From the NCBI GenBank assembly GCA_022447605.1, contig JAKVBG010000023.1, forward strand, positions 1 through 64,000: a DNA stretch of 64,000 nt, read 5' to 3'. A model generated the notes under the pieces. It made no database searches and was not told the origin of the DNA. It worked only from the letters and a program-made list of their open reading frames with translations. The position numbers and the translations under genes are program-made. Below, piece after piece: positions 16,935 through 20,147 of this stretch (position 1 is the first letter of the stretch; each line of letters begins with the position of its first letter). The DNA is from Mariniblastus sp. (GTDB lineage: Bacteria; Planctomycetota; Planctomycetia; Pirellulales; Pirellulaceae).

Positions 16935-17492
16935 TTGTTGGACACGACAAAACACGCCTGTTGGGCAGGGTTGTTGCTTGGAATCGCATGCGGCCTGGCC
17001 TTGCCAATAAGTGCTGCGGGGCAATCGGTTGAAAACGAGCCCCGTTTGGCAGCCCGATACCATGTTGAATCGGGAACCAATCGTGGTTACCTGATTGTCA
17101 AAGCGGAAATGCCCGTTGGCAGTTACATCTACGGGATTTATCAGAGTGAGGAGAGCCCCTGTTCAAAAATTGAAATAGGTCAATCCAAACAATTCAAAGT
17201 ACTGGGAAAATTCAAAGCTGATAAAAAGGCCAAGGTAGTGGCCAAGGACCCGGTTTTCGAATCGAGGTTGGAAAAATACTATGACGTTGTCCAGTTCTAT
17301 GTCCCCATTGAACTGACAGATCAAGTGGACCCGGCGAAAATCAAACCGGTGGTTCGGTTTACCGGCCAAATCTGTTCGGACGAAGGTTACTGCATTCCGA
17401 TCCAGGGAAAGACCATGGCGGTCAAGTTCATGGGTTTTTTCCAGCGGCAGGCGAATGAGTCGAGTCTACGACAGAAGAAAATTCGCAAATAA
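16935..17492 (+). CDS. secreted stand-alone DsbD N-terminal (alpha) domain protein
   Basis: The protein is 185 aa. A signal peptide (about 1-28, LLLGIACGLALPISAAGQ) is followed by one DsbD-alpha-like immunoglobulin fold ending in FTGQICSDEGYCIPIQGK, with the paired cysteines (C-x5-C) that receive electrons from the DsbD membrane domain. No membrane or thioredoxin domain is attached. The start is TTG 16935 (or TTG 16938), preceded by AAGGAAG at 16921-16927; no in-frame ATG exists nearby. It is just upstream of the full DsbD gene and probably serves as an additional periplasmic thiol carrier or partner. That role is inference. Confidence 0.78.
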   Translation: MLDTTKHACWAGLLLGIACGLALPISAAGQSVENEPRLAARYHVESGTNRGYLIVKAEMPVGSYIYGIYQSEESPCSKIEIGQSKQFKVLGKFKADKKAKVVAKDPVFESRLEKYYDVVQFYVPIELTDQVDPAKIKPVVRFTGQICSDEGYCIPIQGKTMAVKFMGFFQRQANESSLRQKKIRK

Positions 17493-17666: not shown

Positions 17667-20147
17667 ATGAAAATACTTCAACAGTCAGAATCACGAATAG
17701 CCGATTTGATGAAGTCGATTGTTTCAATTTGCATTTTTTCCTGGCTTGGTTCGGCGGTGTTCCTGTCAACACCGACACTGCTGGCCCAGACCGACGCGCC
17801 GGGAGGCCTGTTGCTCCAGGATGAGTTTCAGGATTTGCCCGGGTTTGGTGGTGGGTTCGATGGCCAACCCGAATACACGTTCAGTGGTGATTTCACGTTG
17901 AACGAGGCGAGCCGCATTGGCAGCCTGAACATCACGCTCGACATCAAGCCGGATTGGCACGGCTACTCGCAGAAAAAGCTGGCTGGACAAAAACCGACCA
18001 AGTTCACCGTCACGGAATCAGAGCAATTCAAGGTCACAGGACCCTTTATCGCCAACGTCGATCCGATTCAGAAACAGAACGTCCTGGATGAACCGGTCGA
18101 AGAATTTTCAGGGAGTGTCACCTGGACAGCACCGATCGAACTGGCGGCCGGAGTGGACGAAAAGACGCTGGAAATCAATGTTCGGGTCAGTGGACAGGTC
18201 TGCAACGACAAAGCGGGCTGTATCCCGTTCGATCCCGGCCTGGCCACCTTGGACGCCGCCTTCTCCAAGTACGTGGACGTCGCCAAAAGCGCTGGCGAAA
18301 CCCGTTTCCGGGCACCCAATGGACATGCTGAAATTTCGGGCCAACTGGTCCAGGCCGCCGTTGCGCCGGGCGGGACAGCGCAGCTCAAGATCACCGCCAC
18401 GATGGACGCCGGCTGGCATATTTACCAGTTGGAGAGAAGCAAATCGGAAGAACGTTCCAGCATTCCGACGATGATCTACTTTCCCAGGAAATTTGGCTGG
18501 GTCACCAGTTGGCCTACCGCATCATCCGAACCGGAAAAACATGAGTTCGGCCTCAAGGATGAACCGTTCCAGTACTACCATGAAAACCAGGTCACCTGGA
18601 CAATGGACCTGGTTGCCCCTGCTGACGAGAAGGGAGATATCACGCTGGACGGCGTGATGGTCTACCAGGTCTGCGATGAAATGTGTGACCGCCCCCAGAC
18701 CATCCGGTTCCAGGTACCGATCACCGTTACCGACAACCCACAACCGGGCGAACCGGTTGCCATTGCCTTCGAGCCGGACAGTCTCAGCACCGCCAAGGTC
18801 AGCAAGGCCTCTCAAACGTATTGGCAGACGGTGGACGCTGGCAACGTCGTGGTACCGGAAATTCCACTGGCAGCCCTGATCACGTACCTCGGCATGGCGT
18901 TTGTCGCCGGCTTGATCCTGAACGCGATGCCCTGTGTCCTGCCGGTGATCGGCTTGAAGATCATGTCATTTGTGCAACAGGCGGGTGAGAGCCGGTTCAG
19001 AATTTTCATGCTGAACCTGGTGTTTTCGCTCGGCTTGATGACGGTTTTCTGGGTCTTGGCGACACTCGCCGCGTTTTTCGGCATGGGCTGGGGAGACTGG
19101 TTGACCAAGAGCATGACCGGTTCCATCATCATCACGGCCGTCGTGTTTGCGTTTGGATTGAGCATGCTGGGCGTCTGGGAATTACCGATTCCCGGTTTGT
19201 CCGGCGGAGCGGGACAAAAGACAGAAGAAGATGGCTTATTGGGCGCTTTTTTACTGGGGATTCTGACCACGGTCCTGGCCACTCCCTGCACCGGGCCTTT
19301 GCTGGTACCGGCCACCACCATCATTGCCGGGCAGCCTGTCTGGATCGCCTACACCGTCTTCACATTTCTCGGTTTGGGGATGGCCTCACCCTACCTGCTG
19401 ATTGGCCTGTTCCCGGTCGCCATCAAGTGGCTGCCAAAACCGGGGGCCTGGATGACCACCTTTAAACAGATTACCGGGTTTGTCTTGATGGGCACGGTCG
19501 TTTTCCTGTTAGCCTCCTTCACCGAGGAACCTTGGTCAGAGTACATGGTGGCAGTGATGACCTGCCTGTTGTTTATTTCCCTGGGTTGCTGGTGGATCGG
19601 CAGGACGTCTCTGGCTGCCGAGCTACCGGAAAGACTGAAAGCCTGGTCCTGGGGGATCGGGATCCTCGCCTGTGGCACCGCGCTCTCTTTTTACTTCCTC
19701 GTCCCGCCCAAGTATGAATTGAACTGGCAGGAATTTACCAAGGCCCGCCTGGGCGAATTGCAGGAGGAAAGCAGGATTGTATTCATTGACTTCACGGGTC
19801 CGAACTGAGCGACCTGCGACCTGAACGAGGCAGTTGCCTTAAACGTCCGAAAAACACACGACTTTTTTGCCAAGAACGATATCGTTGCCCTGAAGGCAGA
19901 CAAAGCGAAGTCGCCCGAGGTCGAGGAACAATTGGTGGCACTCGGAAACAGCCAGAAAGCGATTCCGTTTTACGCAATTTACGCCCCGGGACTCGACAAG
20001 CCGATTACGTTTTCAGGCCTGATCACATCGAGTGGCGTGATCAGGGAGCTGAGCCAGTTCATCCAGGCACAACCGGGTTCGGCAAGCGCACCGTCCAAGA
20101 AGGTTTCGCCACCGGTCACTTCTGCGGCAGCGGCAGCCACCAACTAG
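17667..20147 (+). CDS. selenocysteine-containing DsbD-type thiol:disulfide interchange protein (in-frame TGA)
   Basis: With TGA 19806-19808 read through, the protein is 826 aa. A signal peptide (possibly starting at the in-frame ATG 17709) is followed by two tandem DsbD-alpha domains, each with a Cys pair (VSGQVCNDKAGCIPF; VYQVCDEMCDRPQ), and an eight-helix transmembrane domain with AMPCVLPVIGLKI and ATPCTGPLLVPA. The C-terminal thioredoxin domain reads VFIDFTGPN-U-ATCDLNEAVAL, with cis-Pro IPFYAIYAPG. TGA replaces the first Cys of the CxxC seen in DsbD (DFTADWCxxC). The frame stays open for 112 further codons of homologous sequence to TAG 20145. DsbD carries cytoplasmic reducing power to periplasmic thiols. 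A conventional annotation would truncate it at 713 aa. Selenocysteine is inferred from position and the following stem-loop. Confidence 0.88.
19806..19837 (+). promoter_or_regulatory. SECIS-like stem-loop following in-frame TGA in dsbD-type gene
   Basis: Directly after the TGA, GCGAC (19809-19813) pairs with GTTGC (19833-19837), TG with CA, and CCT (19820-19822) with AGG (19828-19830) around a GAACG apical loop, with a CGA bulge. A G in the apical loop lies about 15 bases after TGA, close to the usual range for bacterial SECIS elements. The fold was built by eye. Confidence 0.55.

What the first reader, a model, noticed from the sequence alone, without database searches (positions are those of the whole stretch)
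17667..20147. DsbD with selenocysteine in place of the first catalytic Cys (UxxC)
Seen: the frame is broken only by TGA 19806-19808, at the position of the first Cys in the DsbD gamma-domain motif (FTGPN-U-ATC), and runs on for 112 codons of thioredoxin-like sequence with a cis-Pro segment to TAG. Known: DsbD uses CxxC here, and Sec usually replaces a redox Cys. Inference: this DsbD is a selenoenzyme. A Sec in the DsbD periplasmic domain would change the potential and rate of the main route for reducing extracytoplasmic thiols. Standard annotation would truncate it.
Basis: partly seen in the sequence, partly recalled or inferred. Interest (0 to 1): 0.93.

Follow-up and report, generated by a model that had tools for sequence, protein, structure and literature searches.

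The report
DsbD-type membrane relay with selenocysteine
In a bacterium that is likely a planctomycete, a membrane protein of the kind thought to carry reducing power out of the cell has a TGA codon exactly where relatives have their first active-site cysteine; the codon is predicted to be read as selenocysteine, and 42 of the 120 best-matching database proteins end at that very spot, so a likely selenium enzyme has been recorded as a truncated protein.

Summary
In detail: one in-frame TGA (19806-19808) splits an 826-residue DsbD/ScsB-type protein at the first Cys of its C-terminal thioredoxin motif (FTGPN-U-ATC). The genome has SelA, SelB, SelD, tRNA-Sec(UCA) and a second protein of a curated selenoprotein family. 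Of 143 classified DsbD-type loci from 147 genomes (own and relatives), 44 carry TGA here and 99 Cys. All 44 TGA genes have a short hairpin with GU in its loop about 28 nt after the U; 0 of 99 Cys genes do. Nine further TGA genes from a separate scan, including Verrucomicrobia and Candidatus Kuenenia records, have it too. Codons after the TGA evolve under purifying selection in the orthologue pairs tested. Two close paralogues in one genome differ as expected: the TGA copy has the hairpin, the Cys copy does not. Of 120 listed public homologues, 42 end just before this residue. The Sec reading is strongly supported by sequence; insertion, redox effect and clients are untested. UxxC fragments of (from memory) the DsbD-gamma domain were tabulated in 2008 ocean data, so I call this a new variant of a known kind: a full-length transmembrane Sec relay.

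The parts
17667..20147 (+). Sec-containing DsbD/ScsB-type gene, 826 aa with U714, stop TAG
   Evidence: translation; Pfam; model med9f50c5b587 mean pLDDT 83.2
17919..18236 (+). first N-terminal alpha-type domain (DsbD_N, residues 85-190) with Cys179-x5-Cys185
   Evidence: Pfam; C179 and C185 invariant in 33 rows. A second DsbD_N stretch is reported without coordinates; Cys336/Cys340 are nearly invariant
18882..19514 (+). transmembrane beta domain (DsbD_TM, residues 406-616) with Cys423 and Cys541
   Evidence: Pfam; CcdA 5vkv match to residues 408-615; both Cys invariant
19725..19988 (+). C-terminal thioredoxin-fold gamma domain (Thioredoxin_7, residues 687-774)
   Evidence: Pfam; gamma profile matches E. 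coli DsbD gamma 2fwe, E 1.1e-10; Foldseek 1uc7 TM 0.72 by target, rmsd 2.5
19806..19808 (+). TGA codon, predicted selenocysteine 714, first position of UxxC
   Evidence: Cys in 99 of 143 classified loci
19815..19817 (+). Cys717, second residue of UxxC
19827..19840 (+). predicted SECIS hairpin GAGGC(AGUU)GCCUU, +21 to +34 from the U of UGA
   Evidence: such a hairpin in 44 of 44 TGA genes, 0 of 99 Cys genes; synonymous-shuffle rate 0.204 for TGA genes, 0.028 for Cys genes
19965..19967 (+). Pro767, the predicted cis-Pro of the thioredoxin fold
   Evidence: invariant; just before strand 768-772 of the model; cis geometry not measured
16935..17492 (+). separate 185-aa DsbD_N protein immediately upstream with Cys-x5-Cys (CSDEGYC), possible extra alpha-domain partner
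   Evidence: Pfam 27.4 bits, cut-off 25; translation; a homologue lies upstream in L023 and L024, 76 and 67% identical

Best explanation
This gene encodes a full-length DsbD/ScsB-type membrane protein, a likely thiol relay, whose in-frame TGA is predicted to be read as selenocysteine, giving the C-terminal active site Sec714-x-x-Cys717. During translation SelB with Sec-tRNA would recognise the hairpin 21-34 nt after the UGA and insert Sec instead of terminating. By analogy with E. coli DsbD, electrons would pass from cytoplasmic thioredoxin to the membrane pair Cys423/Cys541, then to Sec714-Cys717, then to Cys179/Cys185 of the N-terminal domain, and on to periplasmic clients. Sec714 sits where the first Cys of the gamma motif would attack, so it would speed or shift the hand-over between membrane and N-terminal domain. 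Shown by sequence: codon position, homology, Sec genes, hairpin, conservation. Inferred: insertion, electron flow, kinetic effect, clients.
For: SelA 473 bits, SelB 377 bits, SelD 271 bits and tRNA-Sec with TCA anticodon in the same genome, plus a second protein of curated family NF041199 (393 bits, cut-off 300) with two TGAs and a hairpin in a similar place. TGA at this codon in 44 and Cys in 99 of 143 classified loci; 10 changes on the tree against 37.8 for shuffled labels. Hairpin with GU loop, centre 27.9 nt (sd 0.8) after the U, in 44 of 44 TGA genes and 0 of 99 Cys genes. It is also in 17 of 17 full-length TGA genes of a separate pattern scan, 8 of which are genes already counted and 9 new and distinct. 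Downstream dN/dS 0.068 (L022/L023) and 0.050 (L022/L024), with the five hairpin codons identical in the latter pair although pS is 0.74. SelB over cut-off in 38 of 43 TGA genomes against 39 of 94 Cys-only genomes, Fisher p 1.2e-7. Full-length Cys homologue FTGPGCLTC in P0006. Gamma profile and fold match E. coli DsbD gamma.
Against: No expression, mass-spectrometry or selenium data. The window's own 3' region folds no better than shuffles (z -0.27, -0.95, 0.39), its stem is only 5 bp with one G-U, and RNAfold prefers another pairing; the support is comparative, and the hairpin rule was set after seeing the TGA sequences. Five TGA genomes lack SelB over the cut-off; four of them have tRNA-Sec or SelA over cut-off (G023 only a SelA fragment), but G004 (80% complete) has none. 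With relatedness removed, the SelB link rests on 10 independent pairs (4.3 with, 0.2 against, 5.5 equal; median p 0.125). The window comes from a draft assembly of 203 contigs.
Confidence: 0.93

Rival explanations
1. Pseudogene or sequencing error: the TGA is a nonsense mutation or a miscalled TGC/TGT and the gene is dead or simply Cys-containing.
For: Draft assembly of 203 contigs; TGA differs from TGC/TGT by one base.
Against: The same codon is TGA in 44 of 143 classified loci and in 9 further genes; purifying selection downstream; the hairpin tracks TGA, 44 of 44 against 0 of 99.
Confidence: 0.02
2. The UGA is a functional stop: the organism makes a truncated alpha-beta protein, and the gamma domain arises only by occasional read-through.
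For: Public gene calls end here in 42 of 120 listed homologues, but those are predictions. Bacterial Sec insertion is often incomplete (recalled).
Against: Downstream codons are constrained as coding sequence; a hairpin is seen with TGA and not with Cys; the domain would be cut at its first active-site residue.
Confidence: 0.03
3. UGA is generally recoded (for example to Trp or Cys) in this lineage rather than to Sec here.
For: Only that the frame stays open.
Against: 3 of 9 neighbouring genes checked end in TGA and none of the nine has an in-frame TGA; tRNA-Sec and SelB are present; the homologous residue is Cys, and Trp already fills the preceding position in 34 of 44 TGA and 98 of 99 Cys forms.
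Confidence: 0.01
4. It is a Sec-containing ScsB-type copper-tolerance relay feeding a ScsC-like isomerase rather than a general DsbD (compatible with the Sec reading; it changes the client).
For: Top Foldseek match of the model is the ScsB N-terminal domain 6c29 (E 1.6e-6); several homologues are named 'suppressor for copper-sensitivity B' by JGI; two DsbD_N stretches.
Against: The 6c29 superposition is loose (rmsd 10.2); no ScsC-like protein among the nine neighbours scanned; the JGI names come without evidence, and other homologues are named DsbD.
Confidence: 0.3

Closest known systems
E. coli DsbD (protein-disulfide reductase; gamma domain 2fwe, 1uc7)
   Same: alpha, beta and gamma order, six redox positions, gamma fold and active-site position
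   Different: Sec predicted for the first gamma Cys; GPN instead of ADW before it; two N-terminal domain stretches; below the NCBIfam DsbD cut-off (100.9 of 330 bits)
ScsB (suppressor of copper sensitivity B)
   Same: alpha, transmembrane beta and gamma domains (PMC8900818, passages read); 6c29 is the top fold match
   Different: Sec in place of Cys (that known ScsB uses Cys is recalled); no ScsC-like gene among the nine neighbours scanned
TsoB, rhodanese/DsbD fusion-like selenoprotein (NF045694)
   Same: DsbD-type part in a selenoprotein; 147.6 bits over residues 397-756
   Different: Far below its cut-off of 805; listed with motif UxxxxU and two Sec (PMC13188914, passages read)
GOS 'Trx-like 2 (Thiol disulfide interchange protein)', cd02953, UxxC, 22 sequences in 13 samples
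   Same: UxxC in a domain that is, from memory, CDD's DsbD gamma model (PMC2398784, passages read)
   Different: A table row from ocean metagenome sequences; the passages that I saw give no full-length membrane protein or host for this family
Trx7/PDZ (seleno)protein NF041199
   Same: A Thioredoxin_7 protein with TGA in this same genome
   Different: PDZ-type rather than DsbD_TM partner domain; TGA at both active-site positions

Membership tests
bacterial selenoprotein | in-frame UGA at a position held by Cys in homologues | tested here: met
bacterial selenoprotein | stem-loop just downstream of UGA with a small apical loop containing G | tested here: met
   44 of 44 against 0 of 99, though not as the window's own minimum-energy fold; criterion as worded in PMC1088965 (passages)
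bacterial selenoprotein | SelA, SelB, SelD and tRNA-Sec in the genome | tested here: met
bacterial selenoprotein | Sec found in the protein | not testable with these tools
   needs mass spectrometry or 75Se
DsbD-type relay (broad) | alpha domain, DsbD_TM, C-terminal thioredoxin domain | tested here: met
   Pfam; gamma fold
DsbD-type relay (broad) | six redox positions conserved | tested here: met
   C179, C185, C423, C541, U714 (as Cys), C717 invariant in 33 rows
NCBIfam DsbD subfamily (PRK00293) | score over 330 bits | tested here: not met
   100.9 bits; four Cys homologues tried also fail, 101.9-132.8
TsoB (NF045694) | score over 805 bits | tested here: not met
   147.6 bits
ScsB | ScsB-like N-terminal domain | tested here: inconclusive
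   6c29 E 1.6e-6 but rmsd 10.2
ScsB | reduces ScsC and supports copper tolerance | not testable with these tools
   needs assay
GOS Trx-like 2 (cd02953) | match to CDD cd02953 | not testable with these tools
   CDD is not on hand; identity of cd02953 with DsbD gamma is recalled

The most novel reading that the evidence does not exclude
A widespread class of selenocysteine-containing transmembrane thiol relays, cut short in protein databases, puts selenium supply in control of periplasmic reduction: with selenium the whole relay is made, without it translation stops before the gamma domain and electrons cannot leave the membrane, some genomes keeping a Cys paralogue as backup.
Probability: 0.3. 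Interest if true: 0.82.

Novelty: new variant of a known kind. Interest (0 to 1): 0.64.

Why it matters
DsbD-type proteins are a main route by which bacteria send reducing power across the membrane. Sec at the relay step that joins membrane and periplasm would tie selenium to extracytoplasmic protein folding, cytochrome maturation or metal tolerance in planctomycetes and others. Natural Sec/Cys pairs, including two close copies in one genome, make the question 'what does Sec buy over Cys' directly testable. At least 42 database proteins look truncated and could be re-annotated. The 53 TGA genes with their hairpins (44 and 9) are a ready set for modelling SECIS elements in Planctomycetota.

Tried and rejected
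Single-sequence folding of the window's downstream region gave no significant structure; only the comparison across relatives did. A plasmid DNA search returned one short match (97 bases, 4% of the query). An Rfam scan of the window found only a tRNA. phmmer of the whole protein against PDB found only CcdA; the gamma profile was needed. Folding energy against codon-matched shuffles separates TGA from Cys genes at 36 nt (p 1.4e-11) and 45 nt (p 8.6e-6) but not at 60 nt (p 0.11); relatedness is not removed there. dN/dS was computed for seven pairs: downstream values could be given for four (0.050, 0.068, 0.117, 0.213), the others being saturated; the upstream value for L156/L158 (0.925) is very likely an ungapped misalignment. 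Two loci (L224, L228) could not be classified and were dropped before counts; 10 of 147 genomes gave no classified locus. For most genomes only the best match was classified, so Cys paralogues in TGA genomes are undercounted. The 17 full-length genes of the pattern scan were picked by hand (long upstream frame and long match to DsbD references). Considered and rejected: pseudogene, general recoding, functional stop (see rivals).

Literature: ten searches of the open library. I saw passages (what=find) of PMC13188914, PMC4807772, PMC1794560, PMC2398784, PMC9312934, PMC1088965, PMC3420020 and PMC8900818; other papers as listings only. Nothing that I saw describes a full-length Sec-containing DsbD, but supplementary tables (such as S9 of PMC4807772, selenoprotein candidates of two planctomycetes) were not available, so a prior mention there is possible.

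Full report
Observation. The frame 17667-20147 read with TGA=U gives 826 residues with a single U at 714 in FTGPN-U-ATC and ends at TAG. Pfam finds two DsbD_N stretches, DsbD_TM and Thioredoxin_7. The window lies on contig C120 of a 4.99 Mb, 203-contig assembly, 94% complete. Five same-genus loci (L033, L037, L039, L045 and L117) are identical over 120 nt around the TGA with records titled 'uncultured Pirellulaceae bacterium' (L060, L064, L099, L084, L109), so the host is very probably a member of Pirellulaceae.

Machinery. The genome has SelA (473 bits), SelB (377 bits, over its cut-off), SelD (271 bits) and a tRNA-Sec with anticodon TCA. It also holds L239, a Trx7/PDZ protein that passes NCBIfam NF041199 '(seleno)protein' (393 bits, cut-off 300) and has TGA at two neighbouring positions (FR-U-IP-U-HAC). 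After its second TGA lies a stem with loop GGU at +20 to +40. The Sec system is therefore present and apparently used elsewhere in the genome.

Relatives. A search of 147 genomes (the window's own and 146 relatives) found a match in 145. I classified the first active-site residue in 145 loci (30, 115 stretches): 44 TGA, 99 Cys, 2 unclassified. By genome, 43 have a TGA form (own included), 94 Cys only, 10 none classified. SelB over its cut-off is present in 38 of 43 against 39 of 94 (Fisher p 1.2e-7). Of the five TGA genomes without SelB (completeness 70-89%), G002 and G051 have tRNA-Sec over cut-off, G051 and G143 a full SelA, G023 a SelA fragment; G004 has neither over cut-off. On a FastTree tree of 143 rows the label changes 10 times against 37.8 for shuffles; gain and loss cannot be told apart. 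With independent pairs the SelB link points the right way but is not significant (median p 0.125).

Two gene lineages. Besides the lineage of the window there is a divergent paralogue lineage (DYTADWUPTCK and similar) with 14 TGA and 3 Cys rows. Genomes G015, G025 and G034 hold both a TGA and a Cys form. In G034 the two copies share 239 of 280 positions compared without gaps; the TGA copy has the hairpin GAGCA(GUU)UGCUC, the Cys copy has none that passes.

SECIS. In the 51 nt from each TGA or Cys codon the best uninterrupted stem was picked by one score for all loci; the criterion (5 bp or more, GU in the loop) was set after seeing the TGA sequences. It is met by 44 of 44 TGA genes and 0 of 99 Cys genes; synonymous shuffles meet it in 20.4% and 2.8%. 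The centre lies 27.9 nt from the U (sd 0.8). Different sequences and registers build it: GAGGC(AGUU)GCCUU in the window, CAGAGCG(GUU)CGCUCUG in L033, CGAGAAG(CGUGU)CUUCUCG in L210. Folding energy corrected for codon use is lower in TGA genes at 36 nt (z -1.39 against -0.09). The window's own copy is at the weak end (5 bp, one G-U), and its single-sequence fold is not significant. A separate scan of the genome collection with a degenerate FTADWUxxCK-like pattern gave 62 stretches and 63 places; 17 are full-length DsbD-type genes (picked by hand). All 17 meet the criterion, against 11 of the other 46 places. Eight of the 17 are genes already counted; the nine others match no counted gene at more than 105 of 120 nt and differ from each other. 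They include two records titled Verrucomicrobia/Verrucomicrobiia and one titled Candidatus Kuenenia. I searched 13 of the 17 genomes for SelB: 11 are over cut-off; four of the 13 hold genes already counted, and of the nine others 8 have SelB (not that of L085).

Translation past the codon. Between the window gene and its closest orthologues the 85 codons after the TGA have dN/dS 0.068 (L023) and 0.050 (L024) and no stops; the five hairpin codons are identical in L022 and L024 although pS over the 85 codons is 0.74. In the public protein set, the search listed the best 120 of 1132 proteins: 42 end right before this residue (...DFTGPN and similar), 76 carry CxxC by pattern and the other 2 carry it on inspection. 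The DNA behind the 42 was not inspected. P0006, the best full-length one, reads FTGPGCLTC.

Structure and mechanism. In the AlphaFold2 model (mean pLDDT 83.2, pTM 0.58) ten of the eleven 10-residue blocks of 691-800 are at 90 or more, the block with the active site at 86; a helix starts right after residue 714 and a strand right after Pro767. Foldseek's best matches include ScsB's N-terminal domain (6c29) and DsbD gamma (1uc7, TM 0.72 by target, rmsd 2.5; 1vrs chain E, 0.77) among many hits to unrelated beta-rich proteins. A gamma profile finds E. coli DsbD gamma best (2fwe, E 1.1e-10), with the U/C column on the first Cys of ADWCVACK. C179, C185, C423, C541, C717 and the U column are invariant in 33 full-length rows. 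PMC3420020 (passages) gives the order thioredoxin, membrane domain, C-terminal domain, N-terminal domain for E. coli. By that analogy Sec714 is the attacking residue of the middle carrier; this step is inference. Trp just before the active residue is lost in 10 of 44 TGA forms and 1 of 99 Cys forms, as if Sec relaxed a constraint; the counts are not corrected for relatedness.

Known work. A 2026 review lists many prokaryotic selenoprotein families; its one mention of DsbD is TsoB (PMC13188914, passages). The 2008 ocean survey has a row 'Trx-like 2 (Thiol disulfide interchange protein), cd02953, UxxC, 22 sequences' (PMC2398784, passages); I recall cd02953 as the DsbD gamma model, so the domain-level idea is probably not new. 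What I did not find in print is the full-length transmembrane protein with its SECIS, its spread in Planctomycetota, the Sec/Cys paralogue pair, and the database truncation. The protein fails the NCBIfam cut-offs for DsbD and TsoB, as do the four Cys homologues tried, so I file it as a DsbD/ScsB-type relay in the broad sense.

Verdict. Sec in this protein is likely (0.93); its biochemical advantage, clients and selenium gating are open.

Noticed in passing
L239 (own genome contig C1), 1369-2697: Trx7/PDZ protein of NF041199 with two TGAs (FR-U-IP-U-HAC), a likely double selenoprotein, with a hairpin after the second TGA.
   Followed up: partly
L188 and L189 (genome G034): Close DsbD-type paralogues (239 of 280 positions alike), one with TGA and hairpin, one with Cys and none: a natural Sec/Cys pair.
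   Followed up: partly
window 16935-17492: Stand-alone DsbD_N protein upstream of the Sec gene, with a homologue upstream in L023 and L024; possibly an extra alpha domain.
   Followed up: partly
L207-L223: A second, divergent DsbD-type lineage in the same genus and a few others, 14 TGA and 3 Cys rows (DYTADWUPTCK and similar).
   Followed up: partly
L055, L057, L059, L062, L076, L077, L091, L097, L101 and others: Small thioredoxin-like ORFs with FYADWUxxCK in records titled Melainabacteria, Obscuribacterales, Acidobacteria, Zixiibacteriota and others; 35 of the 46 places that are not full-length DsbD lack this GU hairpin, so they have another SECIS type, are not Sec, or are chance matches.
   Followed up: no
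all 143 classified loci: The Trp before the active residue is lost in 10 of 44 TGA forms but only 1 of 99 Cys forms.
   Followed up: partly
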